Below are positions 2,772 through 62,485 of a stretch of 64,000 nucleotides of DNA, piece by piece. The notes under the pieces are model-generated. The model had not been told where the DNA came from, ran no database searches, and saw only the letters and a list, made by a program, of their open reading frames with translations. The stretch lies in the NCBI RefSeq assembly GCF_016900315.1, contig NZ_JACSNQ010000002.1, positions 1 to 64,000 of the forward strand. Reading direction: 5' to 3'. A program made the translations under genes and the position numbers. This DNA is from Olsenella profusa (GTDB taxonomy: Bacteria; Actinomycetota; Coriobacteriia; Coriobacteriales; Atopobiaceae). Each line of letters starts with the position of its first letter. The first letter of the stretch is position 1.

Positions 2772-2783
2772 GGCGAGAAGAAC
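2772..2783 (+). repeat. Dispersed 12-mer GGCGAGAAGRAC (representative copy)
   Basis: Representative of a short dispersed sequence. Plus-strand exact copies begin at 2772, 8098, 10070, 15108, 16746, 19494, 20413, 22876, 27327, 30384, 35134, 36022, 37890, 38578, 51062, 55935, 60931 and 62430. Minus-strand copies lie at 13989, 15063, 18546, 25845, 25863, 31310, 33957, 57290, 57320, 59005 and 60886. Close variants (CGAGAAGAAC or CGAGAAGGAC) lie near 2197, 2996, 7841, 8659, 9975, 10250, 12348, 13583, 16316, 16760, 18501, 20123, 23621, 27803, 32419, 38918 and 62732. Inside genes it is read as GEKN/GEKD, VLLA or ARRT according to frame. Confidence 0.9.
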
Positions 2784-2809
2784 GTGCGCCCGCCCCCGCG
2801 CCGGTCCCG

Positions 2810-4783
2810 CTACAGCTCCCGAGCGAGCGCGTACGCGGCGGCCATCGCGTCCTTGATGTTGCCGGGCTTCTCGGCGTCGCCGATCACGTGGACGCTCGCA
2901 CCCGCCGCGGCAAGCTCGTCGGCGAGCGTCGGGTCCGGACGGTAGCCCAGCGCCAGCACCATCGTGTCCGCCCCGGCGATCTCGTGCTTCTCGCCGTCCT
3001 TCTCGTAGCAGATCGTGTCCTCGGTGACATTGGTGACGCGGGCCTCCGTGAGCACGTGGACGCCCTTGGCGAGCATGCGGGTGATGAGGGCAGCGCGGCC
3101 GGCGGCACCCTCCGTTGGGTCCAGCGTGGGGCCCATCTCCACGAGCGTGACGTCGCGGTTGCCCTTGGCAAGGTCGTTCACCAGCGGCGCGAGGTAGTCG
3201 GCGACCTCGCAGCCCACCGAGCCACCGCCCACCACAACGATCCGCTTGCCCGGGAAGGCGCGGCCGGCCAGGATGTCGTCGGCGGTCACGGCCTGCTTGA
3301 AGGCGCCCGCCCAGGCCGGCACGATCGGCTCGGCGCCGGTGGCAAGGACCACCTCGTAGCCCGGGAAGTCGCGCCTCACGTCCTCGGCCGTGAGGCGCCG
3401 GTCCAGGCGCACCTCCACGCCCGCCTGCTCAAGCCGGCGTGCCTGGAACTTGATGACGCGCGCGAGGTCCTGCTTAGCGATGGGCACCGCGGCGATGCAC
3501 ATGGTGCCGCCCGGCTCGTCGGCCGCGTCCACGAGGACCACGTGGTGGCCGCGGCGCGCCGCAACGAAGGCCGCCTCCATGCCGGCGGGGCCCGCGCCGA
3601 TCACGAGCACGTCGCGCTTCTCGGCCGCAGGCCCCTGGGCGCCGTCGTCGTGCTCAACGTCCGGGTTCACCGTGCAGGCGATGGGCTTGCCGAACATGAT
3701 GCCCGTGAGGCAGCGCAGGCACCCTATGCAGGGTCGGATGTCGTCGGTCCGCCCCGCCGCGGCCTTGTTGCAGAACTCGGCGTCGCAGAGGTTGGCGCGG
3801 CCCATCATGCAGGCGTCGGCCACGCCCTCCTCGAGCAGCTCCTCGGCGATCCAGGCCTCGTTGATGCGGCCGACCGTGGCCACCGGAATGCTCACGCACG
3901 CCTTGATCTGGCGCGCGACCGCCGCGTGACTGCCCTGGCGCGTACCCGCCGCCGGGATGGCGCTGCCGCGCTTGATGGTGGTGCCGCCGGAGACGTGCAG
4001 CATGTCCACGCCGGCGCGCTCCAGCTCGCGGGCCACGTGGCACATGTCGGTGACGGTGAGGCCGCCGTCGGAGTACTCGTCGCCGGAGATGCGGACGTCG
4101 ATGATGAAGTCGTCCCCGCAGCGCTCGCGCACCTCGCGGACCACCTCGAGCGTGAGGCGCAGGCGGGCGTCGATGTCGCCGCCGTACTCGTCGGTGCGCT
4201 TGTTGTAGAGCGGCGAGAGGAAGCCGCCGAGCAGGCCGTGGGCGTGGGCCGCGTGGATCTCGACGCCGTCGGTGCCGGCGCGCCTCATGCGCTCCGCAGC
4301 GTCGCCGAACTGCCGCACGAGCACCTTGAGCTCCTCGCGCGTGACGGGACGCGGCGCCTCGCGGGCATAGTAGGGCCCCACGTTTGACGGGGCGATCAGC
4401 TGCGGGGTTCCCGGCAGCGGGAAGGCCATGTAGGCGGGGTGGAAGAGCTGTGGCAGGAGCTTGGCCCCTCCCTCGTGGACGGCCGCGGCCAGCCGGGTCC
4501 AGCCCTCCACGTAGGAGTCGTCCGCCATGCACATGTCGCCGGGCAGGTAGACGTAGGTGGGCTCCACGGTCACGACCTCCGTGACGATGAGCCCCACCCC
4601 GCCGGCCGCGCGCGAGGCGTAGTGGTCGATCAGTGCGTCGGTCACGTAGCCGTGGTCGGCCAGGTTGGTGGAGACCGGCGGCATGAAGACGCGGTTGCGC
4701 ACCTCCTGCGTGCCGACCTTGAGCGGCGAGAATAGCATCGGGTACTTCTCAGAGCTCGACGCGAGGTCCTTCGTGGTTGCCAT
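2810..4783 (-). CDS. NADH:flavin oxidoreductase, 2,4-dienoyl-CoA reductase (FadH)-like
   Basis: 657-residue three-domain oxidoreductase of the old yellow enzyme/FadH/BaiCD group that passes electrons from NAD(P)H through FAD, a [4Fe-4S] cluster and FMN to an unsaturated substrate. The N-terminal TIM barrel (about 1-340) has EIHAAHAHGLLGGFLSP and NKRTDEYGG. The cluster motif is CIGCLRC plus a later Cys in ACTVNPD. The C-terminal half has the FAD motif GAGPAGMEAA and NAD motif VVVGGGSVGCEVA. I chose the ATG at 4783, which has GGAGAGG at good spacing; the open frame extends further upstream but is low-complexity. Substrate unknown. It is transcribed alone, away from the GTGCAC array. Confidence 0.85.
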   Translation of the reverse strand: MATTKDLASSSEKYPMLFSPLKVGTQEVRNRVFMPPVSTNLADHGYVTDALIDHYASRAAGGVGLIVTEVVTVEPTYVYLPGDMCMADDSYVEGWTRLAAAVHEGGAKLLPQLFHPAYMAFPLPGTPQLIAPSNVGPYYAREAPRPVTREELKVLVRQFGDAAERMRRAGTDGVEIHAAHAHGLLGGFLSPLYNKRTDEYGGDIDARLRLTLEVVREVRERCGDDFIIDVRISGDEYSDGGLTVTDMCHVARELERAGVDMLHVSGGTTIKRGSAIPAAGTRQGSHAAVARQIKACVSIPVATVGRINEAWIAEELLEEGVADACMMGRANLCDAEFCNKAAAGRTDDIRPCIGCLRCLTGIMFGKPIACTVNPDVEHDDGAQGPAAEKRDVLVIGAGPAGMEAAFVAARRGHHVVLVDAADEPGGTMCIAAVPIAKQDLARVIKFQARRLEQAGVEVRLDRRLTAEDVRRDFPGYEVVLATGAEPIVPAWAGAFKQAVTADDILAGRAFPGKRIVVVGGGSVGCEVADYLAPLVNDLAKGNRDVTLVEMGPTLDPTEGAAGRAALITRMLAKGVHVLTEARVTNVTEDTICYEKDGEKHEIAGADTMVLALGYRPDPTLADELAAAGASVHVIGDAEKPGNIKDAMAAAYALAREL

Positions 4784-4994
4784 GGCGGTTCCTCTCCGGG
4801 CACGACGGCCCAACCGGAGGTGCATTCTCCCCACCGTACCGCCAGGCCTGGTCACGGGCGGCGCCGATTGGGCGAGCGGTCGGCGGGAGGAGGCGGGTCG
4901 GCCAGGGCGGGCAGACGTGGGAGGAGGCGACAGGGTCGCAGCGGGGCGGGCGACAAGAACCGCGGGCTCGCAACGACGCCGCGCACCCCGACCC

Positions 4995-5318
4995 CTAGTG
5001 AGACTCCCCCACGAGCTTGAGGCCGACGACGCAGGCGACAAGCCCCGTCAGCAGCACGATCTTCGCCCACGAGAAGGGCTCCGAGCCCGTCGCCATGCCA
5101 TAGGCCACCGTGATGGCCGCCCCGATGCCAACCCACACCGCATAGGCGGTCCCGATGGGAATGGTCTTCACGGCGTGGCTCAGGCCCAGCATGCTCACTA
5201 CGAGCGCCGCGAGAAAGACAATCGACGGGAGGGGCCTCGTGAACCCCTCAGCACGGTCGAGCGCCACCGCCCACACGGCCTCCATCGCGCCCGACACAAC
5301 CAGAACGACCCAGTCCAT
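4995..5318 (-). CDS. sugE: SMR family exporter, guanidinium exporter Gdx (SugE)-like
   Basis: 107 residues with four hydrophobic helices, the normal length for small multidrug resistance proteins. The conserved membrane glutamate is in SGAMEAVWAVAL (about residue 13), and GTAYAVWVGIGAA is the SMR signature in helix 3. The AVWA-type first helix fits the Gdx/SugE branch, which exports guanidinium. A guanidine-III riboswitch lies directly upstream, so the physiological substrate is very likely guanidinium. Start ATG at 5318 has AGGGAGG upstream. Monocistronic as far as visible. Confidence 0.9.
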   Translation of the reverse strand: MDWVVLVVSGAMEAVWAVALDRAEGFTRPLPSIVFLAALVVSMLGLSHAVKTIPIGTAYAVWVGIGAAITVAYGMATGSEPFSWAKIVLLTGLVACVVGLKLVGESH

Positions 5319-5344
5319 GACAGCCTCCCTGACCGTTGACTCCC

Positions 5345-5367: not shown

Positions 5368-5371
5368 CCAA

Positions 5372-5419: not shown

Positions 5420-5432
5420 ATGGGCCAGCTGC

Positions 5433-5679: not shown

Positions 5680-6633
5680 GTGCCAACCGCCCTTCTCCTC
5701 ATCGTCATTGGTTTTGTCCTGCTCATCGTTGGTGCCGACGCGCTCGTCGAGGGTGCCCGTCGCATCGCGGCGCGCCTCGGCGTGCCCGATCGCGTGGCCG
5801 GCCTCACCATCGTGGCCATCGGCACCTCCCTGCCCGAGCTCGTGGTGAGCGTGACCTCGGCCGTAGGCGGGCACGCGGAGATGGCCTTTGGGAACGTGGT
5901 GGGAAGTTGCCTCGCCAACCTGCTGCTCATCCTGGGCCTCTCCGCCGTCGTGGCGCCCATCGCACTCTCCCGGGACACCCAACGCTTTGAGATTCCCGTA
6001 AGCGTGGCCGCCTGCGGGCTGCTCGCGCTTCTCGCCAACACGGACGGCCAGGTCACGGCGTCGGAGGGCGCGGTCCTGCTCGCCGCCTTTGTCGCCTTCC
6101 TGGCACGCACCGTCACCGTGGGGCTGCACGAGGGAGCCGGAGAGAAGGGCGAGGCCGCGGGGGACGGCGGCTCGGGGGCCGGGGCGGTCGCACTCGACCT
6201 GGCGCGCATCGTCGTTGGCGCCGTGATGCTCAAGTTCGGCGCCGACCTCGTGGTGGACAACGCCACCCTCATCGCCGCTGGGGCGGGCGTCTCCGAGCGC
6301 GTCATCGGGATCACGGTCGTGGCGCTGGGCACGTGCCTGCCCGAGCTCGTCACGAGCGTAGTGGCCGCGCTGCGCGGCAACTCCGACATCGCCGTGGGAA
6401 ACGTCGTGGGCTCCAACATCTCCAACCTGCTGCTCGTGATGGGCGCGCCCGCGCTCTTCTCGGCGGTTCCCTACGACGCCGCCTACAACCTCGACCTCGT
6501 CCTTCTCGCCGTGTTCTCGCTCGCCCTGGTGGGGTTTGCCTTCATCGGGCGACGCCACGAGATGAGCCGCGCGAACGGCGTGGCCTTCGTCGTGCTCTAC
6601 GTGGCGTACGTAGCGGTCTCCGTGCTTCGGTAG
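5680..6633 (+). CDS. Sodium/calcium exchanger family protein (CaxA/YrbG-like)
   Basis: 317-residue membrane antiporter with about ten helices in two homologous halves. Both alpha-repeats are clear: GTSLPELVVS...GNVVGSCLAN near residues 48-85 and GTCLPELVTS...GNVVGSNISN near 220-255, including the ion-binding Glu and Asn residues. A hydrophilic Gly/Glu loop (about 148-170) links the halves. Expected role is Ca2+ export in exchange for Na+. Start is GTG at 5680 preceded by GAAAGGA; no better ATG is present. The 240 bp upstream (5439-5679) holds only short direct repeats of GGTCGCGTCCGACC and no gene. Confidence 0.85.
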   Translation: MPTALLLIVIGFVLLIVGADALVEGARRIAARLGVPDRVAGLTIVAIGTSLPELVVSVTSAVGGHAEMAFGNVVGSCLANLLLILGLSAVVAPIALSRDTQRFEIPVSVAACGLLALLANTDGQVTASEGAVLLAAFVAFLARTVTVGLHEGAGEKGEAAGDGGSGAGAVALDLARIVVGAVMLKFGADLVVDNATLIAAGAGVSERVIGITVVALGTCLPELVTSVVAALRGNSDIAVGNVVGSNISNLLLVMGAPALFSAVPYDAAYNLDLVLLAVFSLALVGFAFIGRRHEMSRANGVAFVVLYVAYVAVSVLR

Positions 6634-6654
6634 CCGCGAGGCACGCGGGCGCCC

Positions 6655-6990: not shown

Positions 6991-6997
6991 CGCGGCC

Positions 6998-8089: not shown

Positions 8090-8146
8090 ATGCGCGGGCG
8101 AGAAGGACCGCGGGAAGCGGGAGCCGTCGAGAAAGGTAAGCGTTTC

Positions 8147-8770: not shown

Positions 8771-8774
8771 CATC

Positions 8775-9989
8775 TCATGATGCGGAGAGACGCCTCTTCG
8801 CATCAAGCGCAAGCGTCACGCCTGCGAGCAGCATCGCCACAAGCGAGAGCCCGGCGCCCACGAGCCCCACGAGCGGCAGCCCCGGCCCCGACACCACGGC
8901 GCCGCCCACGGCCGTCCCAAAGGCGATCCCGCAGTTGAACGACATCGGCTCGAGCGAGCTCGCCAGCGTGAGGGCCTTGGGGTGGCGCCGCCGCGCGGCC
9001 CGCATGAAGTCGCTGATGCACGGGACCGAGACCACGTACATCGTGACGCCCACGAGCAGCACCGGCACGAGCGCGGCCGGCACGGCGGGGCCCACCAGGT
9101 AGAGCGCGAGCAAGACCGCGGCCTGCACGGGAAACGACACGAGCAGGGCCCGCAGCCCAAAGCGAGCGTCCGCCCAGCCGGAGAGCAGGTTGGAGAAGAA
9201 GCACGCCACGCCGTAGGCCATGAGCACGGCGCTCGCCGCGGCCGGACTCAGGCCCAGCACCTCCTCGAGGTAGGGCGTGACGTAGCCGTAGAACACGTAG
9301 ACCGACCCCACGCCAAAGACGAAGATCGCCATGCCGGTGAGGACCTGCGGCTCCGCGAGGAGCGCCACCTGCTCGCACACGGTCGCCGGCTCGTCCGTGG
9401 CGCCGGAGCGCGGCAGCACGAGCTGCAGCGCGGCGCTCACGAGCACGGAGAACGCCAGGGTCACGAGCATGGCGGCGTGCCACCCCAGCGCGTCGGCGAT
9501 CATCTTGCCGGCCGAGGTGGCAAGCACCATGGCCACGGAAAAGGCCGCGTACACCACCGAGATGGTCACGGAGGTGCGCTCCACGCCCACGAGTTCGGGA
9601 ATGAAGGTCACCCCCACGGCCAGAAGCGCGCCCGAAACCGCACCGAGCAGGACGCGCGCGGCGAGAAGGACCTCGAAGCCCGGGGCGAACGCCATCGCCG
9701 CGTTGGCCAGCACGAAGACCGCCGAGTAGACGGCGAGCAGCGTGTAGCGGCGAAGCCGGCCCGTGGTGACGGCGAGCACGGGCGTGCAGACGGCGTAGGC
9801 GACGGAGAAGAAGCTAATGAGCTCGCCCACGCGTGCGAGGCTCACGTCAAAGGCCCGGGAGAGCTCCGGCTCGATCCCGATGACAACGAACTCGGAGCAG
9901 CCGAGCGAGAAGCCCAGGGCCACGAGCAGCGCCACGCAGGCGAGCGTGCGCGCCCGCGACATCGCTCCCAACCCGTTCTTCTCGCTCAT
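8775..9989 (-). CDS. MFS transporter, DHA1/AraJ-like exporter
   Basis: 404 residues with twelve predicted helices in two halves separated by a charged loop near residue 195. The loop between helices 2 and 3 has TTGRLRRYTLL, the MFS motif A region. Overall look (LGCSEFVVIGIEPELSRAF near the N-terminus) fits the AraJ/SotB/YdhP group of drug or sugar exporters; substrate unknown. I chose ATG at 9989 (GGAGG five bases upstream) over the GTG two codons earlier. The N-terminal MSEKNG is another reading of the dispersed motif. The stop lies beside the REP palindrome. Confidence 0.8.
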   Translation of the reverse strand: MSEKNGLGAMSRARTLACVALLVALGFSLGCSEFVVIGIEPELSRAFDVSLARVGELISFFSVAYAVCTPVLAVTTGRLRRYTLLAVYSAVFVLANAAMAFAPGFEVLLAARVLLGAVSGALLAVGVTFIPELVGVERTSVTISVVYAAFSVAMVLATSAGKMIADALGWHAAMLVTLAFSVLVSAALQLVLPRSGATDEPATVCEQVALLAEPQVLTGMAIFVFGVGSVYVFYGYVTPYLEEVLGLSPAAASAVLMAYGVACFFSNLLSGWADARFGLRALLVSFPVQAAVLLALYLVGPAVPAALVPVLLVGVTMYVVSVPCISDFMRAARRRHPKALTLASSLEPMSFNCGIAFGTAVGGAVVSGPGLPLVGLVGAGLSLVAMLLAGVTLALDAKRRLSAS

Positions 9990-10050: not shown

Positions 10051-10241
10051 TGCCCGGTCATGGTCTCCTGGCGAGAAGGACCCGCGCGCTGGTCGGGCGG
10101 GCCGCCGGCGGCGGGCGCCTGGCCGCGCGCCCGTCCGCGACCGGCTGCCAGGCGCCCGCCCACAGCCGGCGCACAAGCGACGCTCGGGCAGCCGGAGGCA
10201 CGCTCCCTTTTCTGAGGATCGGGGGCACGCCCCCAAATCCG

Positions 10242-12914: not shown

Positions 12915-14408
12915 ATGCCCCAGAACCTGATGCTCTCCGGCGTCACGTACGCCTATCCCTGCTCGCCCGAACCCATCCTCGACAACGTGACTGTGACCTT
13001 CCCCCCGGGCTGGACCGCCCTCATGGGAGACAACGGCTGCGGCAAGACCACGCTCGCAAAGATTGCCTGCGCCCTCCTCGAGCCTGGCGCCGGGTCCGTC
13101 ACGCATGGGCTCGTGTGCGCCTACGTCGCCCAGGACGCCGACGAGCCGCCCGAGGCGCTCTCCGACTTCGCCCTCGACTACGGTCGGGATGCCCGAAGGC
13201 TGCGCGACGCCTTCCGCCTGACTGATGACATGCCCTGGCGCTTCTCCGAGCTCTCCTTCGGCGAGCGCAAGAAGCTGCAGGTGGCGGTTGCCCTCTGGCG
13301 GCGCCCGGACGTGCTCGTGGCAGACGAGCCCACCAACCACCTCGACGCTGACGCCCGCGCCGAGCTCGCCGCGGCGCTCGCGGACTTTGGCGGCATCGGG
13401 ATCCTCGTCTCGCACGACCGCGACCTCGTTGACGCACTCGCCACCCGCTGCGTCTCCTTCGAGCCCAAGGGCCTCGTCGTGAGGCCCGGGGGCTACACCG
13501 CCGCGCACGCCCAGGCGGAGCTCGAGCGCGCCGGCGTGGCCGACGAGCGCCGCAACGCCCGTCGCGAGCTCGCGCGCCTGTCCGCCGAGAAGGACGCCCG
13601 GGCCCACGAGGCGGCGCGAGCCGACGTCCTGCGCAGCAAGGGGCGCGTCGACCCCAAGGACCACGACGCCAAGTTCCGCATCAACCGCGCGCGCTTCACC
13701 GGAAAGGACGGGCACGCCGGGCGCGTCTCCGCCCAGATGGACGCCCACCTCGCCGCCGCCCGCGAGCGCCTGGACGCGGCGCGCACGCACAAGCGCTACG
13801 ACGGCGACCTCTGGCTCGGCGCCGAGCCCGCGCGCCGCCGCACGGTACTCCACGTGCCCGCGACGACCATCCCGTGCGGGCCGGACGCCACGCTCCAGGT
13901 CCCCGAGCTCTGGGTGGGCAACACCGACCACGTGGGCGTCGTCGGGCCCAACGGCGCCGGAAAGTCGACCCTCCTCGCCCACCTGCGCGTCCTTCTCGCC
14001 CAAGGCGCGGCGGGGCTCGGCGTGCTCGACATCCCGCAGGAGCTCGCCGTCGGGGAGCGCGACGCCGCGGTGCGACGCATTGCCAGCCTCGGCCCCACAG
14101 AGCGAGGGCGGGTGCTCTCCGCCGTGGCGCAGCTTAACTCGGAGCCCGACCGCGTGCTCGAGGGCGGGCGCACGAGCCCCGGCGAGCTCCGTAAGCTGCT
14201 GCTCGCCGAGGGGGCGCTGCGGCGGCCGGCGCTCATCCTCATGGACGAGCCCACCAACCACCTGGACCTCCACTCCACCGAGGCCCTCGAGCGCGCGCTC
14301 ACCGCCTGGCCGGGGGCGCTCGTGCTCGTGAGCCACGACCGCCGGTTCCTCTCCGCCTGCACCACGCGAACCTGGGAGGTGCGCGACGGCCGCGTCCGGG
14401 AGGCGTAG
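12915..14408 (+). CDS. ABC-F family ATPase
   Basis: 497 residues with two ABC domains and no membrane segments. Domain 1: Walker A GDNGCGKTT (about 37-45), signature SFGERKK, Walker B VLVADEPTNHLD. A charged linker (about 215-300) follows. Domain 2: Walker A GPNGAGKST, a reduced signature TSPGELRK, and LILMDEPTNHLD. ABC-F proteins act on the ribosome, and some protect it from antibiotics; this one is shorter than Lsa/Msr types and its role cannot be told from sequence. It follows a strong promoter and long leader, and an HD-domain gene follows within 45 bp. Confidence 0.85.
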   Translation: MPQNLMLSGVTYAYPCSPEPILDNVTVTFPPGWTALMGDNGCGKTTLAKIACALLEPGAGSVTHGLVCAYVAQDADEPPEALSDFALDYGRDARRLRDAFRLTDDMPWRFSELSFGERKKLQVAVALWRRPDVLVADEPTNHLDADARAELAAALADFGGIGILVSHDRDLVDALATRCVSFEPKGLVVRPGGYTAAHAQAELERAGVADERRNARRELARLSAEKDARAHEAARADVLRSKGRVDPKDHDAKFRINRARFTGKDGHAGRVSAQMDAHLAAARERLDAARTHKRYDGDLWLGAEPARRRTVLHVPATTIPCGPDATLQVPELWVGNTDHVGVVGPNGAGKSTLLAHLRVLLAQGAAGLGVLDIPQELAVGERDAAVRRIASLGPTERGRVLSAVAQLNSEPDRVLEGGRTSPGELRKLLLAEGALRRPALILMDEPTNHLDLHSTEALERALTAWPGALVLVSHDRRFLSACTTRTWEVRDGRVREA

Positions 14409-14963: not shown

Positions 14964-15020
14964 CCGGGCCGCGCCCGGTCCACGCACCCGCCCCAACGCC
15001 CTGACACGTTGCTCGCGGCA

Positions 15021-15178
15021 GGGTACGTACACCCCCTGCGTAGGGTACGTACACTTCCCGACGTCCTTCTCGCCGGGCTGTCCGACGTTTCCGCAGGTAG
15101 ACGAGTTGGCGAGAAGGACGTCGGGGCCTCGGCGGTGTACGTACCCTACGCGGGGGGGTGTACGTACCCTACGCAGGG
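15021..15178. repeat. GTACGTAC inverted element 1
   Basis: Two GGGTACGTACAC units (15021, 15043) on the left face two GTGTACGTACCC units (about 15137, 15159) on the right. Inside lie an inverted pair of the dispersed 12-mer (15063 minus, 15108 plus) and a central TCCGACGTTTCCGCAGGTAG. The whole 158-bp block can form one long stem. The element at 60845-61013 has the same parts in the same order. The rest of this gap (to 15348) holds no gene. Confidence 0.88.
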
Positions 15179-15348
15179 GCGCACGCGCGGCCAAGCGGGA
15201 CCGCCCACCGCCGCCCCACGCCGCCGCCCTCGACCCCCGCCCGCAACACGGCCGTCCTCTACCGGCAACAAGCCCGTCAGACGTGCGCAACACGGACGCC
15301 GTAGGCTAGCTCGGGGGGCTGTGCCCCAAGCAACCAGAGGGAGTCGCC

Positions 15349-18500: not shown

Positions 18501-18557
18501 CGAGAAGAACGCTGCCCTGACGGCATTTGCGCAGCTCTTGTGCAGGTTCTTCTCGCC
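18501..18557. repeat. Inverted pair of the dispersed motif after the transglutaminase gene
   Basis: CGAGAAGAAC at 18501 and GTTCTTCTCGCC at 18546 form a 10-bp stem with a 35-nt loop that itself contains small pairings. It begins 1 bp after the stop codon, so it may work as a gene-end hairpin. No T-run follows. Confidence 0.65.
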
Positions 18558-19410: not shown

Positions 19411-19552
19411 GCCGTTCTTGTTGGTGCCCCCATTGACCATGACGCGTTCATGGCGTCGCCTCCCCTCCTTGTCTTAAATCCACCAGAGACAGAGGCGAGA
19501 AGAACCGTGGCGCAGGTAGAATGACGTTCAGGAAAGCGTGAGAGGGGCTCCC

Positions 19553-20158: not shown

Positions 20159-20958
20159 GGCTGCGGTACTGGGTGGTGGACGCCTTTGCCGAGCGGCCGC
20201 TCACGGGCAACCCAGCCGGCGTCTGCGTGCTGGGGGACTGGCTCGACGACGGGCTCATGTGCGCGATAGCCGCCGAGAACCGCCTCTCGGAGACCGCCTT
20301 CTGCGTGCGCCGCGACGACGGGACCTACGACCTGCGCTGGTTCACGCCGCGCGCGGAGATCGACCTCTGCGGGCACGCGACCTTCGGTACCGCCTACGTG
20401 CTCTTTCGCACTGGCGAGAAGAACGCGGACGAGATCGTCTTTCACGCCCCGATGGCGGGGCACCGGCTCGTCTGCCGGCGCGTGGGGGACCGCACCGAGA
20501 TGGACTTCCCACGCATCGTCCCCACGCCCGCACCGCCCGAGCTTGCGGGACCCGTCGCAGCTGCCTGCGGGGCGGAGCCGACGGAGCTGCTCGTCACGGA
20601 GCGCGACGTGGTCGCCGTCTTTGCCGATGAGGCGACGGTGCGTGACCTGCGGCCTGACACGGCGGCCGTGGAGCGCCTCGAGCACGGGCTCTCGCTCTAC
20701 GTGACCGCGCCTGCCGCGGGCTATGACTACGTGGCCCGCGCCTTCTGGCCCAAGCTCGGCATCCCGGAGGACCCGGTCTGCGGGTCCATGCAGTCGGCTC
20801 TTGTCCCGTACTGGTCTGGCCGGCTCGGCCGCGCGGAGCTCACCTGCTTCGAGCCCTCCGAGCGCACGGGCACGGTGTGGTGCCGCGACTGCGGGGACTC
20901 CGTTCGCATCTCCGGCCACGGGGCGCTCTACCTGGAGGGGACGATCGAGGTCGGCTGA
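20155..20958 (+). CDS. PhzF family isomerase/epimerase-like protein
   Basis: 267 residues, normal family length. The catalytic Glu is in ENRLSETAFCV (about residue 46), and GHATFGTAYVLF and DPVCGSMQSAL are the two conserved Gly-rich loops of the duplicated diaminopimelate-epimerase fold. PhzF relatives isomerise trans-2,3-dihydro-3-hydroxyanthranilate, but lone PhzF-like genes usually have unknown substrates, and no phenazine genes are present. The dispersed motif is read as RTGEKNADE in a surface loop. Confidence 0.8.
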   Translation: MRLRYWVVDAFAERPLTGNPAGVCVLGDWLDDGLMCAIAAENRLSETAFCVRRDDGTYDLRWFTPRAEIDLCGHATFGTAYVLFRTGEKNADEIVFHAPMAGHRLVCRRVGDRTEMDFPRIVPTPAPPELAGPVAAACGAEPTELLVTERDVVAVFADEATVRDLRPDTAAVERLEHGLSLYVTAPAAGYDYVARAFWPKLGIPEDPVCGSMQSALVPYWSGRLGRAELTCFEPSERTGTVWCRDCGDSVRISGHGALYLEGTIEVG

Positions 20959-22834: not shown

Positions 22835-22921
22835 GGCGCGCTCCTTTCCCGAGCTCCTTCTCAGCCTCATTTAACGGCGAGAAGAACCTCAGGTCGATGG
22901 GCACTTCTGACGCAGGGGTGG

Positions 22922-35113: not shown

Positions 35114-35169
35114 GGCAGTGTGCGTCACGCCGGGGCGAGAAGAACCTGGTGGAGAAGAGCCGGTGGGGC

Positions 35170-50587: not shown

Positions 50588-51487
50588 TGCGCAGCGGCCG
50601 CAGGCGGAGCAGCCGTTGCAGATGAGGCGCTGCCCGCACGTCTTACAGCGCTCGCGGAAGCTGGGCTGGTAGAGCTCCTCGGCGGGGATCGGCAGCCTCA
50701 GCGGGTCGTGCAGGTGCCACTCGATCGGCCGGCCGGCAAAGCTCACGCCGGACTTGAACGCCTGCTCGGACTGGAGCCGGTGGTCGCGCAGGCGGTAGGT
50801 CCGCCCGTCCTTCACAAAGACCGTGCCCGTCTCGGTGAAGGCGAACGTCACGTCATGCGCGCGGCACTGCGCGGAGAGCAGGCGCACCCAGTCGAAGTCG
50901 CACGGGCGGGCGCCTTCATAGTTCTCGCCGCCGCAGATGACCTGCTCGATGCCGCAGCCGCGCACGCCGCCCCCGCCGTGATCGCCCAGCTCCAGGTACC
51001 TCTCGATGTCCACCTGCCCGATGAGCGGGGCGCACATGACGCCCTTGTGGCGCGCCGGCGTGGCGAGAAGAACCGGAAGCCGCTCGTCGGCACGGCGCTG
51101 GTTCTCACAGGTGACGTTGAGCATGACGTTGTCCCAGCCCTCGCCCCAGTCGTCCGGGAGGCACGTGGCAAAGCGCTCCGGGCGCTTGGTGAGCAGCCAG
51201 AACCGCACGTCGGGACGCTGACGCATGACGTCCCAGGCCTCATCGCGCCAGGGGTCCGCCTCCTCCACGAAGAAGTCCGAGGTCATGCACACGCGGATGA
51301 GCTCGCCGGGGCGCACCTTGAGCGAGCCGTCGCGGCTGCGCGCCAGCGGGTAGCGAAACCCCGCCTTGTTGCGCCGCACAACGGAGCCGTCCAGCCCCCG
51401 CCAGCGGTCCATCGTGAACATGTAGCAGTTGGCGCAGCCCTCGCTCGCCTTGCGGCACCCGTGCCACGGGTTCCAGATGTCATGCAT
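50585..51487 (-). CDS. DUF5131 (phage Gp37/Gp68-like) family protein
   Basis: 300 residues. The N-terminal NPWHGCRKASEGCANCYMF (about 6-24) and later LTKRPERF, NVTCENQRRADERLP and CGGENYEGARPCDFDWVRLL are hallmarks of DUF5131 proteins, which are found in phage and bacterial genomes and have a radical-SAM-like fold but no proven activity. The C-terminus adds a Cys-rich ending CKTCGQRLICNGCSACGRC that could bind metal. Flanked on both sides by REP palindromes; the stop codon is part of one. No other phage genes are nearby. Confidence 0.78.
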   Translation of the reverse strand: MHDIWNPWHGCRKASEGCANCYMFTMDRWRGLDGSVVRRNKAGFRYPLARSRDGSLKVRPGELIRVCMTSDFFVEEADPWRDEAWDVMRQRPDVRFWLLTKRPERFATCLPDDWGEGWDNVMLNVTCENQRRADERLPVLLATPARHKGVMCAPLIGQVDIERYLELGDHGGGGVRGCGIEQVICGGENYEGARPCDFDWVRLLSAQCRAHDVTFAFTETGTVFVKDGRTYRLRDHRLQSEQAFKSGVSFAGRPIEWHLHDPLRLPIPAEELYQPSFRERCKTCGQRLICNGCSACGRCA

Positions 51488-55908: not shown

Positions 55909-55950
55909 CTCCGGAGTCGGACGACGGGCAAATTGGCGAGAAGAACCATC

Positions 55951-55996: not shown

Positions 55997-58900
55997 CTAC
56001 GCACCCTGCAGCAGTGCCAGCACGTCGTCGCGACTGAGCCTGGCAGAGCGCACGCCCTCTCCGGAGATCAGGCGCTCGGCAAGTTCGCGCTTGGACTCCT
56101 GCATCGCCACGATACGCTCCTCGATGGTATTTGCGCAGATGAGCTTGAAGACCGTGACCGCGCGCTCCTGCCCGATGCGGTAGGCGCGGTCTGTGGCCTG
56201 GTTCTGCGCGGCGAGGTTCCACCACGGGTCATAATGAATCACCACGTCGGCGGCCGTAAGGTTGAGCCCCACGCCGCCGGCTCGCAGCGAGATGAGAAAC
56301 AGGGGCGCCTCCCCCGCCTGAAAGCGCGCCACCAGCCGTCGACGCTCCTCCTTGGTCGTGGAGCCGGTGAGCTCAAAGTGGGCAATCCCCCGCGCGTCAA
56401 GCCTCTGCGCGATGATGCCAAGCATCGTGGTGAACTGCGAGAACAGCAGCACCTGATGCCCACCGTCAACTGCGCCAGCAATGAGCTCCAGACAGGTGTC
56501 AAGCTTGGCGCTGCCTCCTGTGTAGTCCTCGAACGCAAGCGACGGGTCGCAGCAGATCTGTCGCAGCTTCGTGAGCTCGGCAAGTACCTGGAGCTTGTTC
56601 TTCCTGAACTCGACGGGCAGCTCTCGGGCGATCTGACGCGCCAGGAGCTCCTCGCTCGCCCGGTAGAGCCTCTCCTGCTCCCCGCTCATGCGCGCCGTGA
56701 CCACGCTCTCCGTCTTCTCCGGGAGGTCGGCAAGCACGTCGGCCTTGAGGCGCCTCAGGATGAAGGGGGAGACCAGGCAGCGCAGCCGCTCCGCGGCACG
56801 TTCGTCGCCGCCCTCCACGGGACCCTCGTAGGTCTTTGCGAACTCGTCCCGACTCCCGAGCACGCCCGGCATCAGGAAATCGAAGATGCTCCAGAGCTCG
56901 GACGCGCGATTCTCGACGGGCGTCCCCGTAAGCGCCAGCCGCGTCCGCGCGGGAAGGAGCCTTGCGGCACGGGCAACCTTGGTCAGCGGATTCTTGATGT
57001 ACTGGGCCTCGTCAAGGACCACGCGAGAGAAGCGCTGGCCAGCGTAGGCGTCGACGTCACGGCGCATGAGGTCGTACGAGGTCACGAGCACGTCGTGGTC
57101 CGCCGCTGCCGCTATCACCTTTCCGCGCGCCGGCTTGGTGCCGAGGACGGCCACGGCGTCGAGCTCGGGCGCAAAGCGTTCGAGCTCGGACATCCAGTTG
57201 TAGACGAGCGATGCCGGACACACCACGAGCGTCGTGGCGAGAAGGGCCCCGGGACTCGCGGCCCCATCGCCCAAAGCACCCGACTCGGCGTTCTTCTCGC
57301 CGACAGCCGCTCCCCCGACGTTCTTCTCGCCGGCCTGCTTGCAGGCCAGAAGGTGGGCTATCACCTGGAGCGTCTTGCCGAGCCCCATGTCGTCCGCGAG
57401 GATGCCGCCAAAGCCAAGACGGTCGAGCAGCTGGAGCCAGCGGAAGCCGTCGAGCTGGTAGGGTCGCAGCACGCCCGCAAGCGTGGGCGGAACCTCCACG
57501 TCCGCGTCAGAGAAGGTGTCCAGCTCACGCACGATGGCACGGAAGGCGTCGTTGCGCGAGAGGCGCAGGCCGCCCGCTCGCTTGAGCAGGCCATCCACGA
57601 AGGGCACGCGATAGACGGGCAGGTTGGACACACCCTCGGCGAGCTCCTCCACGGAGACGCCCAGACCCGTCGCGAGGTCGTCGACGGCGGCCGCGCCCTC
57701 CCCCAGCCGCATGATGTCTCCACTGGTCAGGCGCACGAACTTCTGGCGGCGCCGGTACGCGGAGAGACAGGCGTCCAGGTCCTGCGGGCAGAGGCCGCTC
57801 GCATCCAGCGCCACGTCCAGAAGGCCGCTCGTGACCGTGGCACGCACGGTGAGGCTGGGGCTGTCGCGCACCTCGATGCGGCGCAGGCGCTCGGAGAGCA
57901 GGACCTCGCCGAGGGCGTCAAGCTCCGCGAGACCACGCGTGAGCAGGTCAAAGAGCAGATCGTCGTCATCCTCGTCAAAGCCGGGAAGCTCACCTGCCTC
58001 AAGGCGCCCCCCGGGGAAGTACGCCTCCACCACGTCCATGACGCGATACTCCGACACAAGGTCGCGCGCTGGGACGCGACGGTCCGCCAAGCGCGGTGAC
58101 CAGCGGGCGCGTTCGTCCTCCAGACGGTCCGGCCCGTAGAGCCCGTGCTCCCAGGCACCGTAGGCCACGGTGACGCCGCAGGTCACACGCCCGTCGTCAA
58201 GGCCCACAGCAAACGTGAAGGCCGCCTCGGGCGGGACGAGCTCATCAAGCTCAGCCGGCGCGTCGAGGCCCGTTGCCGCCCGCAGGACGGGCAGGACGTC
58301 CCGACAGAAGGCCGAAACGTCCGCAGGTGCGACGTGCATGCCCCGACCTGCGGGAAGGAGTGCGCCGAGAAGCCCCGCGGCACGGAGGGCGTAGTCCGAG
58401 GAGCAGCTCAGGGCCCGCCCCTCGTCTAGGACGTATAGGCGACCAGCCGCGGCAAAGCTGCAGAGCGCCCCGGAAACGAGCAGGTCATAGCCTCCGTCGC
58501 CGGCACGCTCCAGACGGGTGCGGACCTCTGGATCTCCCCTGCCTACCACAAGCTGGCGCGTCGGCCCTCGTGACCCGTAGGGGCCGTCACTGAGCTCAAG
58601 GGAGACCGTGGACCCCTGGAGCGCGTCCAGCAGATCGATGACGTCGGCGTCCGAGACGGGCAGCTCCTTGACGTCAGCGCCCCGCCCGACCTGCTGATAC
58701 TTCCATCGCGAGGCAAAGAGCGCCCCCTGGCTGGCCGTCACGCGGGAGAGGACGGCCACGACGGCACGAGAGCGCTCCGAAAACGCCGCGCCCACGTGGG
58801 CAAAGGAGAGCCCCTTGCCATAAGTGACCGTAGCCCCGGTCCGGCATGCCTCCACCAGCGCAGAGATGCTCTTCACCACGTACGAGGCGCTCCCGCGACG

Positions 58901-59491
58901 GACGCGCAGCTTCACGCACCAGGCAGGGTCATCGTAGTAGGCGTCCCGAGCGGGCAGAAGCGTGGCAAGAAGCTCGACGGGCTCAGGCGGAGCAGCGGGG
59001 GCACGTCCTTCTCGCCGGCAACCGGGGGTCGAGGCCTCCGTGGCACGCAGCCGACGCTCGGTAAGGTCCTCCATGAGATGGCGGATTGCCGGGCTCGTGG
59101 GCAAGGCACGCACGGGAGGGAGCGTGGGCGCGGTCCTGGCGGGCGGACGACGTGCGGCGGCGGCAACGAGCCCCAGCCCCCTGCGCGCAAGAAACTCGAG
59201 GACGAGAGCCACCTCGTGCTTGCACATGCCCGCGTAGCTGGATGCGGCGACGCACTCGCAGCTGTAGTCCAGCAGCTCCGCCTCGGACTCGTCAACCTGC
59301 ACCTCAACGTGATAGCTGCTACCGCGCAACCCTCTGACCAGCCCCGTTATGGACGTCGTGGAGCCAAGGGCGCCGACGGACGCCTCGCAGCTGATGACAC
59401 CGCCGTCGCGCGCCAGCGCAAGCCCCCTCCCGTAGGTGGAGGGGAGCGCCGCCTCGTTCTGAACCAGCTCTATCAAGCGGTTCTCATCCAT
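55997..59491 (-). CDS. SNF2 family helicase with SWIM zinc finger
   Basis: 1164 residues from ATG 59491. The N-terminal SWIM motif has CEC and CKH about 10 residues apart (around residues 78-91). A long middle region (about 150-640) is bacterial SNF2_N-like. The ATPase core shows DDMGLGKTLQV, LVVCPASLVYNW, VVLDEAQYIKN and LTGTPVENR, then LLFSQFTTMLG and the final helicase motif TDRAYRIGQERAV. These swivelling ATPases move on DNA; role in bacteria is unclear. Just after motif I lies AGEKNVGGAAVGEKNAESG, from two adjacent 12-mer copies in an exposed loop. Single gene, convergent with the flavin reductase gene. Confidence 0.9.
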   Translation of the reverse strand: MDENRLIELVQNEAALPSTYGRGLALARDGGVISCEASVGALGSTTSITGLVRGLRGSSYHVEVQVDESEAELLDYSCECVAASSYAGMCKHEVALVLEFLARRGLGLVAAAARRPPARTAPTLPPVRALPTSPAIRHLMEDLTERRLRATEASTPGCRREGRAPAAPPEPVELLATLLPARDAYYDDPAWCVKLRVRRGSASYVVKSISALVEACRTGATVTYGKGLSFAHVGAAFSERSRAVVAVLSRVTASQGALFASRWKYQQVGRGADVKELPVSDADVIDLLDALQGSTVSLELSDGPYGSRGPTRQLVVGRGDPEVRTRLERAGDGGYDLLVSGALCSFAAAGRLYVLDEGRALSCSSDYALRAAGLLGALLPAGRGMHVAPADVSAFCRDVLPVLRAATGLDAPAELDELVPPEAAFTFAVGLDDGRVTCGVTVAYGAWEHGLYGPDRLEDERARWSPRLADRRVPARDLVSEYRVMDVVEAYFPGGRLEAGELPGFDEDDDDLLFDLLTRGLAELDALGEVLLSERLRRIEVRDSPSLTVRATVTSGLLDVALDASGLCPQDLDACLSAYRRRQKFVRLTSGDIMRLGEGAAAVDDLATGLGVSVEELAEGVSNLPVYRVPFVDGLLKRAGGLRLSRNDAFRAIVRELDTFSDADVEVPPTLAGVLRPYQLDGFRWLQLLDRLGFGGILADDMGLGKTLQVIAHLLACKQAGEKNVGGAAVGEKNAESGALGDGAASPGALLATTLVVCPASLVYNWMSELERFAPELDAVAVLGTKPARGKVIAAAADHDVLVTSYDLMRRDVDAYAGQRFSRVVLDEAQYIKNPLTKVARAARLLPARTRLALTGTPVENRASELWSIFDFLMPGVLGSRDEFAKTYEGPVEGGDERAAERLRCLVSPFILRRLKADVLADLPEKTESVVTARMSGEQERLYRASEELLARQIARELPVEFRKNKLQVLAELTKLRQICCDPSLAFEDYTGGSAKLDTCLELIAGAVDGGHQVLLFSQFTTMLGIIAQRLDARGIAHFELTGSTTKEERRRLVARFQAGEAPLFLISLRAGGVGLNLTAADVVIHYDPWWNLAAQNQATDRAYRIGQERAVTVFKLICANTIEERIVAMQESKRELAERLISGEGVRSARLSRDDVLALLQGA

Positions 59492-60128: not shown

Positions 60129-60836
60129 GTGATCCGTGACGAGCTCGCGGCGCTGGCGGACTCCGCCTACCGCGACTTCCAGGCAAAGCTCATACCAACC
60201 GTGGCACCCGAGCGCGTCCTGGGAGTACGTCTGCCCGAGCTGCGCCGCTACGCCCGCGACCTCGCGCGCCGTCGCCCCGACGAGGCTCGGGCCTTCATGG
60301 CGGCCCCGCTGCCGCACGTCACCTACGACGAGATGAACCTCCACGGCGAGCTCATAGGGCTGCTTGCGGGCTCGGCAGACGAGGCCTTCGCGCTGCTCGA
60401 CCGCTTCCTGCCGTACGTGGACAACTGGGCCACGAGCGACCTCATCCGCGTGCCGGCCTTCCGGAGCGCGCTTCCCGCCGTGCTGGGGAAGATCCGCCTA
60501 TGGGCGGCCGCCGAGGGCCCGCGCACCGAGTACGTGGTGCGCTTCGGCGTGACCCAACTCATGGAGCTCTTCCTGGACGACGCCTTCGAGCCCGCGCAGC
60601 TTGAGGTGGTCGCCGCGATCAGCCGCCCGGAGTACTACGTCAACATGGCGCGGGCGTGGTACTTCTCGTTTGCGCTGATAAAGCAGGCCGAGGCAACGCT
60701 GCCGCTCTTTGAGGCGCGACCGCCGCGGCTGGACGCGTGGACGCACAACAAGGCCCTGCAGAAGGCGCGCGAGAGCCGCCGCGTCACGCCGGAGCAGAAG
60801 GCGTACCTGCAGTCGCTCAAGGTGCGCTCACGGTAG
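60129..60836 (+). CDS. DNA alkylation repair protein, AlkD-like
   Basis: 235 residues, all-helical HEAT-like repeats. VRLPELRRYARDLAR (about 36-50), HVTYDEMNLHGELIGLL, YVDNWATSDLI and the C-terminal AWYFSFALIK then LDAWTHNKALQKARESRRVT are the typical conserved blocks. WATSD holds the catalytic-type Asp of this family. Removes alkylated bases from DNA. Start is GTG 60129 after GGGAGGGG. Confidence 0.88.
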   Translation: MIRDELAALADSAYRDFQAKLIPTVAPERVLGVRLPELRRYARDLARRRPDEARAFMAAPLPHVTYDEMNLHGELIGLLAGSADEAFALLDRFLPYVDNWATSDLIRVPAFRSALPAVLGKIRLWAAAEGPRTEYVVRFGVTQLMELFLDDAFEPAQLEVVAAISRPEYYVNMARAWYFSFALIKQAEATLPLFEARPPRLDAWTHNKALQKARESRRVTPEQKAYLQSLKVRSR

Positions 60837-60844
60837 CCTTTTGA

Positions 60845-61013
60845 GGGTACGTACACTCCCCTTTAGGTTACGTACACTCCCCAACGTTCTTCTCGCCAGG
60901 TCGTCCGACGTTTCCGCAGGTAGTTGAGGTGGCGAGAAGAACATCAACGTTGCAATAGTGTACGTACCCGGTGGGCGGGTGTACGTACCCGGGGGGGCGG
61001 GTGTACGTACCCC
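60845..61013. repeat. GTACGTAC inverted element 2
   Basis: GGGTACGTACAC and GGTTACGTACAC on the left, three GTGTACGTACCC units on the right, with an inverted pair of the 12-mer (60886 minus, 60931 plus) and the central TCCGACGTTTCCGCAGGTAG shared exactly with the element at 15021. The flanking genes are unrelated (AlkD and universal stress protein here), so this is a dispersed element. The remaining gap to 61194 holds no gene. Confidence 0.88.
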
Positions 61014-61194
61014 GTTGCGGACGGGCGGGCGTGCGCCCAGCCAAGCCGCTGCCTTCGCACAGACCCGTCGCGACGGTGGCCCCATGCCATCCCCGGGCTT
61101 CTCGCCCTCGTTCACCGACCGGACGGCTCCCCGCCGCGAGCACGGGTATAACGCAGGTAAGCGCATCGGCCCGCGACGTTCGAAGGAGGTCGCC

Positions 61195-61668: not shown

Positions 61669-61740
61669 CGCGACTGCAGGTGCGTCTCGGGGCGCGGGCC
61701 TACGGCCCGGATTCAGGACCCCAGCCCCGGGGCGCGCACC

Positions 61741-62241
61741 CTAACCCAGCGAGAAGAGCGCGCGGGACGTCCCCGCCTCGCGCCACGCGAGCAGCGCGGC
61801 AAAACGCTCCCGCGTTGACGCGGCCAGGGGCTCCGGCAGCTCGTCCAGGGAGAACCAGCCCACCGCGAGGCTCTCGTCGTCGGCCACGCGCGGTTCGGAG
61901 CAGCCGCCCTCCGCAAGCCGGCAGGTGAACATGAGGTCAAGGTACTGAGTCTGGTCTCCGTTTGCGTAGACGGTGAGCTCGCGGGCTGCCTTCACGCGCA
62001 CGAGGTCGGTGGGCACCACGTCCACGCCGGTCTCCTCCCGAACCTCGCGTACCACCGTGGCGGCCGGCTCCTCGCCGGGCTCGTTGATGCCGTAGACGAG
62101 CGCCCACTCGCCCGTGTCCGCCCGGCGGCCGAGCAGCACGCGGCCCGCGCCGTCCTCCACGTAGGCCGTCACGCCAACAAGCCAGAGTGGGTCGTGGCCG
62201 ATCTTCTTGCGCAGGGCGAGGATGAAGTCAGGCGTTGCCAT
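61741..62241 (-). CDS. NUDIX hydrolase
   Basis: 166 residues. The Nudix box is complete: GINEPGEEPAATVVREVREE then TGV (about 52-74; pattern Gx5Ex7REVxEETGV). Substrate unknown; typical of broad nucleotide-diphosphate hydrolases. ATG 62241 has AAGGAGG upstream. Convergent with the universal stress protein gene. Confidence 0.92.
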   Translation of the reverse strand: MATPDFILALRKKIGHDPLWLVGVTAYVEDGAGRVLLGRRADTGEWALVYGINEPGEEPAATVVREVREETGVDVVPTDLVRVKAARELTVYANGDQTQYLDLMFTCRLAEGGCSEPRVADDESLAVGWFSLDELPEPLAASTRERFAALLAWREAGTSRALFSLG

Positions 62242-62319
62242 GGGGCCTCCTTGGATGCGTCTCCTTGGGATGAATGATAGCGGGCCGCGCGCCCGGCGGC
62301 CGCGCGGCTGCGCGGCCAC

Positions 62320-62415
62320 TAACAACCAGCCATTTCTAAACACCAAAACCAAGCCGTCTACCTGCGCTTTTCTGCAAATCCGCAGCTAGGAGCCCCGTTA
62401 GAAATCGGCGCATTT
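62320..62415. repeat. TTTCTAAGC hairpin element 4, opposite orientation
   Basis: AACAACCAGCCATTTCTAAA, then CACCAAAACCAAGCCGTCTA and CCTGCG form the left arm, the reverse complement pattern of the right halves of elements 1-3. The right part GTTAGAAATCGGCGCATTTT resembles the arm of the palindrome at 12380. More diverged than the others. Confidence 0.75.
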
Positions 62416-62485
62416 TACCCAGCAAGCGAGGCGAGAAGAACCCCGGGCGGTATAACAGGAGCCATCAGCGCAGAAAGGGGGAGAC

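What the first reader, a model, noticed from the sequence alone, without database searches (positions are those of the whole stretch)
2772..62441. Dispersed 12-mer GGCGAGAAGRAC, about 29 exact copies in 64 kb
Seen directly: the 12-mer occurs about every 2.2 kb on both strands (18 plus, 11 minus by my count), in genes and between genes, and in several reading frames (GEKN/GEKD, VLLA, ARRT). Random expectation on two strands is far below one. Density, use of both strands and tolerance of any frame resemble DNA uptake sequences, known from Neisseriaceae and Pasteurellaceae; other chromosome-organising or short mobile words are also possible. I know of no such word described for this group.
Basis: partly seen in the sequence, partly recalled or inferred. 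Interest (0 to 1): 0.92.

Follow-up and report, generated by a model that had tools for sequence, protein, structure and literature searches.

The report
Genus-wide DNA uptake-like word in Thermophilibacter
A 12-letter DNA word is scattered hundreds of times, on both strands and in any reading frame, through the genomes of a genus of gut actinobacteria, and it looks like a tag for recognising DNA of one's own kind during uptake, something so far known only from two families of Gram-negative bacteria.

Summary
The window has 31 exact GGCGAGAAGRAC (19 plus, 12 minus; chance 0.02). The whole genome (2.07 Mb, Thermophilibacter-like, Atopobiaceae) has 855 (413/442) against 1 for the reversed pattern. 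The 30 congeners counted carry 40 to 673 copies; 23 genomes of other families of the order carry 0 to 14. The excess survives 5th-order Markov and codon-shuffle nulls and is strongest between genes (core 9-mer 165 seen, 3.4 expected) and antisense in genes (76 vs 9). The word is not strand-polar, its flanks are not shared, close inverted pairs fold as terminator-like hairpins, and some sites arose in place by substitution. A second genus uses a one-base dialect (G instead of C before the word). The genome has ComEC, DprA and one Tad/Flp pilus locus; Tad pili serve transformation in the actinobacterium Micrococcus luteus. Best reading: a third, independent DNA uptake sequence, the first in a Gram-positive phylum, probably read by a Tad-pilus machine. 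Against it: uptake is untested, no receptor was found, individual sites are poorly conserved between species, and one congener with the same machinery has only 40 words. No paper in the searched library joins 'uptake sequence' with Coriobacteria.

The parts
2772..2783 (+). word GGCGAGAAGAAC, between called genes
6499..6510 (-). word GGCGAGAAGGAC, antisense in a gene (sense strand codes VLLA); congeners G020 and G007 differ at 6 and 4 of 12 positions within conserved flanks, no gap
8097..8108 (+). word GGCGAGAAGGAC, between called genes
9660..9671 (+). word GGCGAGAAGGAC, antisense in a gene
10070..10081 (+). word GGCGAGAAGGAC, between called genes
13989..14000 (-). word GGCGAGAAGGAC, antisense in a gene; present in congener G007, absent in G022 and G020, which are shorter here
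15063..15074 (-). word GGCGAGAAGGAC, left arm of the pair in the first array element
15108..15119 (+). word GGCGAGAAGGAC, right arm of the pair in the first array element
16746..16757 (+). word GGCGAGAAGGAC, codes GEKD
18546..18557 (-). word GGCGAGAAGAAC, between called genes
19494..19505 (+). word GGCGAGAAGAAC, between called genes
20413..20424 (+). word GGCGAGAAGAAC, codes GEKN
22876..22887 (+). word GGCGAGAAGAAC, between called genes
25845..25856 (-). word GGCGAGAAGGAC, codes GEKD in the P-type ATPase gene 24996-26912; direct pair with the next
25863..25874 (-). word GGCGAGAAGGAC, codes GEKD, direct pair
27327..27338 (+). word GGCGAGAAGGAC, between called genes
30384..30395 (+). word GGCGAGAAGAAC, in a stretch without a called gene
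31310..31321 (-). word GGCGAGAAGAAC, in a stretch without a called gene
33957..33968 (-). word GGCGAGAAGAAC, in a stretch without a called gene
35134..35145 (+). word GGCGAGAAGAAC, codes GEKN near the start of a sensor histidine kinase frame
36022..36033 (+). word GGCGAGAAGGAC, codes GEKD in the same histidine kinase
37890..37901 (+). word GGCGAGAAGAAC, in a stretch without a called gene
38577..38588 (+). word GGCGAGAAGAAC, in a stretch without a called gene
51062..51073 (+). word GGCGAGAAGAAC, antisense in a gene
55935..55946 (+). word GGCGAGAAGAAC, between convergent genes
57290..57301 (-). word GGCGAGAAGAAC, codes GEKN in the SNF2 helicase gene; direct pair
57320..57331 (-). word GGCGAGAAGAAC, codes GEKN, direct pair
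59005..59016 (-). word GGCGAGAAGGAC, another reading frame of the same gene
60886..60897 (-). word GGCGAGAAGAAC, left arm of the pair in the second array element
60931..60942 (+). word GGCGAGAAGAAC, right arm of the pair in the second array element
62430..62441 (+). word GGCGAGAAGAAC, between called genes
15009..15180 (.). array element: inverted GGGTACGTACAC repeats around a core that holds two inverted words (16 of 202 sampled words lie in such elements)
60833..61023 (.). second array element of the same kind

Best explanation
GGCGAGAAGRAC (soft at positions 2 and 11, most often preceded by C or T) is the DNA uptake sequence of this genus. Inferred mechanism: an extracellular part of the Tad/Flp pilus, or a surface protein working with it, binds double-stranded DNA that carries the word; pilus retraction brings it to ComEA; ComEC passes one strand; DprA and RecA recombine it. 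Alleles that gain a word are transferred more often, so words build up by drive wherever they are tolerated, between genes above all, on either strand and in any frame. Shown here: the genomic pattern, the dialect difference and the genes (RecA was not looked for). Not shown: that the word raises uptake, which protein reads it, and that these bacteria are transformable.
For: Genome-wide excess: 855 against 1, robust to Markov and codon nulls. Core 9-mer GGCGAGAAG between genes 165 vs 3.4 expected, antisense in genes 76 vs 9.1, sense 104 vs 64.8; the same direction in congeners G022, G020 and G007, where one or other form of CGAGAAGRAC is the top-ranked 10-mer of the sample in an unbiased ranking. 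The word shapes proteins: GEK[ND] occurs 43 times in the called genes of the sample, all 43 encoded by the word, while reversed [ND]KEG occurs 3 times; VLLA is encoded by the word in 18 of 32 cases. Not polar: C22 has 49/49 with more alternation than chance; in genus g47 (G110) 93 sites make 42 runs, 47 expected. No shared flanks; sites 6499, 84692 and 152492 differ from congeners by substitutions with no gap at the word. Close inverted pairs fold strongly (z -4.3 to -5.3, 3 of 3 folded), two followed by T runs. 30 of 30 congeners counted have 40-673 copies. Dialect: CGGCGAGAAG 168 and GGGCGAGAAG 64 in 477 kb here, but 3 and 75 in 220 kb of genus g46. ComEC in 58 of 60 genomes, own included, DprA, SLBB+HHH ComEA beside ComEC in L070, one T2SSE-family ATPase in the own genome in a locus cpaB-tadZ-tadA-tadB-tadC-flp-like-...-tadE, no type IV pilin (N_methyl) hit. 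Tad genes are required for transformation in Micrococcus luteus (PMC4322843, abstract).
Against: Uptake was not measured. No receptor: the Tad minor pilins have relatives in genera without the word; most are acidic, unlike ComP (the small o128 is pI 8.8 here and in G022); congener G008 has 333 words but no hit to the minor-pilin genes in the 8.9 kb beyond its flp. Individual sites are poorly conserved between species: of 98 sites on C22, 22 align to G022 (2 intact), 7 to G020 (2 intact) and 9 to G007 (2 intact), whereas of 1,518 random 12-mers aligned to G022 403 are identical. Congener G027 keeps ComEC and Tad but has only 40 words. ComEC and Tad-type ATPases occur across the order, mostly without the word, so they do not explain it by themselves; 7 of 30 congeners have more than one T2SSE match. 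The absence of N_methyl pilins rests on one short model that also misses 4 of 14 control genomes. Depletion from foreign DNA rests on few islands and a weak GC trend.
Confidence: 0.72

Rival explanations
1. The word is a Chi- or KOPS-like chromosome signal that steers recombination or segregation enzymes.
For: Short, frequent and genome-wide; recombination would also be its context.
Against: Such signals are polar along replichores (recalled knowledge). The word is strand-neutral within single contigs (49/49 in 250 kb; runs tests) and along the 2.09-Mb contig of G110. It prefers intergenic DNA and inverted pairs.
Confidence: 0.06
2. The word is the binding site of a nucleoid-organising or global regulatory protein, with no role in DNA uptake.
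For: Both strands, dispersed, intergenic excess; no surface receptor was found.
Against: Acceptance in any frame at a cost to proteins, terminator-like pairs, fast turnover of sites and a genus dialect are the known behaviour of uptake words (PMC3630211 and PMC2397512 passages). I recall no such protein with about 850 asymmetric 12-mers.
Confidence: 0.13
3. The word is part of a short mobile repeat (REP- or MITE-like) that spreads by insertion.
For: 16 of 202 sampled words lie in ten 150-190-bp inverted array elements of this genome.
Against: The other 186 lie outside them; flanks of the 202 are not shared, and several sites arose without insertion. In 937 kb of congener stretches only one such array was seen (G022), with degenerate words, though these congeners have the word.
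Confidence: 0.05
4. Codon usage and a favoured GEKN/GEKD peptide make the word common.
For: 43 of 85 coding copies read GEK[ND].
Against: The excess is largest between genes and antisense; codon shuffling reaches at most 35 of the 85 coding copies.
Confidence: 0.01

Closest known systems
DNA uptake sequence (DUS) of Neisseriaceae
   Same: 10-12 bases, many copies, both genes and intergenic permissive places, inverted pairs as terminators, dialects between related taxa (PMC3630211 and PMC2397512, passages seen).
   Different: Unrelated sequence; monoderm Actinomycetota host; only a Tad pilus and no type IV pilin or ComP relative found; lower density (0.41 per kb); function unproved; individual sites not conserved between species at the distance tested.
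Uptake signal sequence (USS) of Pasteurellaceae
   Same: Short over-represented word tied to competence; two dialect types (PMC12616744, passages).
   Different: Different sequence (AAGTGCGGT in Haemophilus), Gram-negative host, type IV pilus machinery.
Tad/Flp-dependent transformation of Micrococcus luteus
   Same: An actinobacterium with comEA, comEC and Tad pili and without a comG cluster (PMC4322843 abstract; PMC6370729 passages).
   Different: No uptake word is mentioned for it in what I saw of these papers.
Chi and KOPS
   Same: Frequent short chromosomal signals.
   Different: Polar along replichores (recalled); this word is not.

Membership tests
DNA uptake sequences (DUS/USS kind) | Short word far over expectation genome-wide, both strands | tested here: met
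DNA uptake sequences (DUS/USS kind) | Not polar along the chromosome | tested here: met
   (no complete own-species chromosome was available)
DNA uptake sequences (DUS/USS kind) | Concentrated in permissive places; inverted pairs at terminators | tested here: met
   9-mer 1.48 per kb between genes, 0.49 in genes; 18 of 27 close pairs are inverted, 7 of these 18 being the 33-base pairs of array elements; hairpins, 3 of 3 folded
DNA uptake sequences (DUS/USS kind) | Dialects that follow phylogeny | tested here: inconclusive
   One-base dialect between g1 and g46, softer variants in g40 and g47; the backbone of the ComEC tree is poorly resolved
[quoted passage not shown]
   Nine gaps over 8 kb, one a low-GC defence-like island; GC trend rho 0.29 over 92 windows, confounded by the word's own GC
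DNA uptake sequences (DUS/USS kind) | The words themselves conserved between related genomes | tested here: not met
   2 of 22, 2 of 7 and 2 of 9 aligned sites intact in G022, G020 and G007. The published tests compare closer genomes (PMC2397512, passages), so this is not the same test
DNA uptake sequences (DUS/USS kind) | Competence machinery in the genome | tested here: met
   ComEC, DprA and Tad locus in the own genome; comEA seen only in relative L070, because the own contig begins just before comEC
DNA uptake sequences (DUS/USS kind) | DNA with the word is preferentially taken up | not testable with these tools
   needs an uptake assay
DNA uptake sequences (DUS/USS kind) | Dedicated receptor that binds the word (ComP type) | tested here: inconclusive
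   no N_methyl pilin; Tad minor pilins mostly acidic and not confined to word-bearing genera
Chi/KOPS | Orientation bias relative to replication | tested here: not met
REP/MITE elements | Shared flanks, inverted termini, insertion | tested here: not met
   186 of 202 words lie outside array elements, flanks not shared, substitution origin of some sites

The most novel reading that the evidence does not exclude
A third, independently evolved self-DNA recognition system for transformation, in Gram-positive gut Actinomycetota, in which a Tad/Flp pilus with an unknown kind of receptor reads a 12-bp word and has split into genus dialects.
Probability: 0.6. Interest if true: 0.93.

Novelty: new variant of a known kind. 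Interest (0 to 1): 0.87.

Why it matters
[quoted passage not shown] A convergent case in a monoderm phylum would show that sequence-selective uptake needs neither an outer membrane nor a ComP-type pilin, predicts that Thermophilibacter and its kin are naturally transformable, gives a handle for the genetics of hard-to-modify gut anaerobes (donor DNA with the word), and makes the drive-versus-benefit debate about uptake words testable in a new lineage.

Tried and rejected
Polarity: listings of the genome search seemed to show 22 of 22 plus sites on one G078 contig and 57 of 57 listed in G007. I take this for a listing artefact, since truncated lists appear to give forward sites first and the whole counts are 43/43 and 120/136; I discarded it. 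The 20 stretches, chosen from that list, were then used only to see frames (21 sites, in several frames and both gene orientations).

Lower-count genera: for g35 (G078) the sample was only 40 kb and I claim little. Sister genera G032, G034 and G035 have other repeated words, but these sit in arrays or palindromes, not as dispersed single words, and were not counted as dialects. G034 is not flat: 8 antisense copies of the 9-mer against 2.1 expected.

Receptor search: Tad-locus genes do not separate word-bearing from word-free relatives (21 loci, of which L157 and L168 end at contig ends). Charges of minor pilins used 17 of those 21 loci, and many cells are empty because my patterns were strict.

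Viral contigs: a 14-mer form of the word gave one hit in each of the 80 contigs listed (120 found, scan stopped at its limit); uninformative. The k-mer ranking on the ten ComEC loci at the end reflects orthology and was ignored. The genic and intergenic counts depend on my own ORF callers, not on an annotation; over-long starts push some upstream words into 'coding' (first fifth of genes: 38 of 84).

ComEC tree: 34 rows; left out were loci with a stop or short or split frames (L391, L397, L398, L399, L400) and further congeners for economy.

My first claim that the array elements are absent from congeners was wrong: one search had not covered L171-L190; (49 stretches, 937,211 bp) found one in G022.

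Literature: searches. The 40 rows seen matched pairs of taxon names and are no test; searches returned 0 papers. The library holds open-licence papers only. Papers seen: abstract and outline of PMC4322843; passages of PMC12616744, PMC3630211, PMC2397512 and PMC6370729; no paper was read whole.
Full report
Observation. GGCGAGAAGRAC occurs 31 times in the window, 19 on plus and 12 on minus; shuffles give 0.02. GGCGAGAAGAAC and GGCGAGAAGGAC are the two commonest 12-mers of the window (18 and 13 copies). In the whole genome (2,072,646 bases, 56 contigs) there are 855 copies, 413 and 442, against 0 and 1 for the reversed pattern.

Organism. The closest ComEC in the named collection is 75% identical, from an uncultured Atopobiaceae bacterium (L070). 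I therefore call the genus Thermophilibacter-like, family Atopobiaceae, class Coriobacteriia; the label rests on these matches, and the class and phylum on recalled taxonomy.

More than chance. I took 476,772 bp of the genome (window included), with 202 exact words. A 5th-order Markov model, which already contains parts of the word, expects 13.0 and 9.1 copies of GCGAGAAGAAC and GCGAGAAGGAC; 133 and 87 are seen. Synonymous codon shuffling of 332 called genes expects 27.9 words in coding sequence (maximum 35 of 100 shuffles); 85 are seen. GEK[ND] occurs 43 times and is spelled by the word all 43 times; the reversed peptide occurs 3 times; VLLA is spelled by the word in 18 of 32 cases. So the DNA word, not the peptide, seems to be what is selected or driven.

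Anatomy. Outside the 12 bases the information is at most 0.39 bit per position and mostly below 0.1: C or T before the word, C or G and then often T after it, and no shared flank. One-mismatch copies (216, reversed control 14) concentrate at positions 2 and 11 (138 of 216). By my gene of 202 words lie between genes, which make up 23% of the sample. The 9-mer GGCGAGAAG has a density of 1.48 per kb between genes and 0.49 per kb in genes; between genes 165 are seen and 3.4 expected, antisense 76 and 9.1, sense 104 and 64.8. Word density is highest between convergent genes (27 in 20.1 kb) and lowest between divergent ones (28 in 35.1 kb). Of 27 close pairs 18 are inverted; 7 of these are the 33-base pairs of the array elements described under Noticed in passing, which leaves 11 of 20. 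Three close inverted pairs that I folded all fold far better than shuffles, and two are followed by runs of T as in intrinsic terminators.

Strand. Within single contigs the word is strand-neutral and alternates slightly more than chance (C22: 62 runs, 50 expected). In G110, whose 93 copies were all listed on one 2.09-Mb contig, there are 42 runs against 47 expected. This speaks against Chi- or KOPS-like signals.

Origin of sites. Aligned with congeners, words at 6499, 84692 and 152492 of contig C22 sit in conserved alignments with no gap at the word and differ from the relatives by substitutions only; at 84692 G007 has the word and G022 has lost or never had it. Others lie where alignment fails or next to gaps (13989, 97247, 112842): of 98 C22 words, 22 align to G022 (84% identical overall) and 2 of these are intact, 7 to G020 (2 intact), 9 to G007 (2 intact), whereas of 1,518 random 12-mers aligned to G022 403 are identical. 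So sites turn over fast and sit in permissive places. In Neisseria, DUS neighbourhoods are also more divergent and many new DUS differ from homologues by more than point mutation explains (PMC2397512, passages); there, however, the words themselves are highly conserved, which I did not find at this larger distance.

Distribution and dialects. In one search, 140 genomes of the family were counted, own included: the 30 congeners have 40 to 673 copies; of 109 genomes of other genera, 24 have 38 or more (genus g46: 484, 291, 305) and 85 have 29 or fewer. Of 23 genomes of other families of the order none exceeds 14. In sampled DNA of g46 (G107, 220 kb), g40 (G091, 84 kb) and g47 (G110, 100 kb) the 9-mer is 16- to 32-fold over expectation between genes (27, 8 and 16 copies); in G034, G032, G035 and G037 there are 2, 0, 0 and 1 copies between genes. 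The base before the core is C in the own genome (168 CGG against 64 GGG) but G in g46 (3 against 75). G027, basal in the genus on the ComEC tree, has only 40 copies: an early or eroded state. The tree's backbone is poorly resolved, so one origin with losses and several origins both remain possible.

Machinery. The own genome has ComEC (779-aa frame), DprA, no N_methyl pilin (the model rings in 10 of 14 controls) and exactly one T2SSE-family ATPase, which lies in a Tad/Flp locus on the window's own contig: cpaB, tadZ, tadA, tadB, tadC, flp-like, pilin-like, TadE-like, a 797-aa pilin-like frame, TadE-like (below Pfam's cut-off), DUF192, FHA. ComEA is seen beside ComEC in the nearest named record (L070); the own contig begins about 220 bases before comEC. 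ComEC is in 58 of 60 genomes and a T2SSE match in 60 of 60 (58 over the cut-off), own included; 7 of 30 congeners have more than one T2SSE match. In Micrococcus luteus the tad genes are needed for transformation (PMC4322843 abstract).

Foreign DNA. Nine gaps over 8 kb in the sample lack the word. One, C2:14471-25093 at 60.7% GC, carries a Schlafen-type helicase, AAA/DUF4143 ATPases and sub-threshold GmrSD-C and AbiEi matches and looks acquired; the window's own gap holds a PTS and GH1 sugar operon. This fits but is thin.

Reading. The pattern matches a DNA uptake sequence in most respects; it fails on site conservation, tested only at a large distance, and direct function was not testable. I give 0.72 to the uptake reading and 0.6 to the full novel case with a Tad pilus.

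Literature. PMC12616744 (passages) names Neisseriaceae and Pasteurellaceae as the only families known. No paper in the searched library holds both 'uptake sequence' and 'Coriobacteri', none prints the 12-mer or its complement as a whole word, and none holds 'uptake sequences', 'Actinobacteria', 'overrepresented' and 'transformation' together.

Noticed in passing
window 15009-15180 and 60833-61023; also L108 8604-8793 and 11194-11363, L112 near 9367, L113 near 15073, L116 near 14372, L120 15633, L122 12362, L127 12720; in congeners L175 5555-5690 (G022): A 150-190-bp element, 10 copies in 477 kb of the own genome: direct repeats GGGTACGTACAC spaced 21-22 bp in two inverted arrays about 92 bp apart, around a core like CGTTTCCGCAGGTAGACGAG; two exact inverted words in 7 copies, one exact and one degenerate in 2, none in 1. 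One copy, with degenerate words, in 937 kb of congener stretches. Function unknown.
   Followed up: partly
L188 near 12553 (G007); L150 3600-3790 and 4975-5160 (G035): Elements with a similar core (CTACCTGCGGAAA in L188, GCAGGTAGA in L150) but different flanking repeats (GGGTACTTTTT and AGTCGTTCGC; 93 bp apart in L150): possibly one element family with changing repeat words.
   Followed up: partly
L142 16340-17480, L143 6140-6290 (G032): 33-bp repeats of the type GTGGACAAATGGCTCTCTCCGAAGCGTCCA in tandem and inverted arrays.
   Followed up: no
L110, L136-L139 (G034): GGGGAGTACCC-type palindromic words, many flanked by AAACACGGG-type repeats, 17 copies in 100 kb.
   Followed up: no
window 5370-5431 -: Guanidine-III riboswitch, 38.5 bits against a gathering score of 36.
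   Followed up: no
window 10242-12407 -: EF-G-like translational GTPase whose best match is the tetracycline ribosomal protection family, well below that family's cut-off (391 against 775 bits): a distant paralogue.
   Followed up: no
window 55997-59527 -: SNF2 helicase, best match 'pilus expression-regulating Snf2 family helicase', below its cut-off (504 against 1100 bits).
   Followed up: no
L391 (G112), L397 (G096), L398 (G060), L399 (G097): ComEC with an internal stop (G112) or short or split frames (G096, G060, G097) in some relatives, which have few words (3, 29, 10 and 16 copies): possible loss of competence alongside loss of the word; many relatives with intact ComEC have as few.
   Followed up: no
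G000:C2:14471-25093 (L124, L125): Low-GC (60.7%) island without the word, with a Schlafen-type helicase, AAA/DUF4143 ATPases and sub-threshold GmrSD-C and AbiEi matches.
   Followed up: partly
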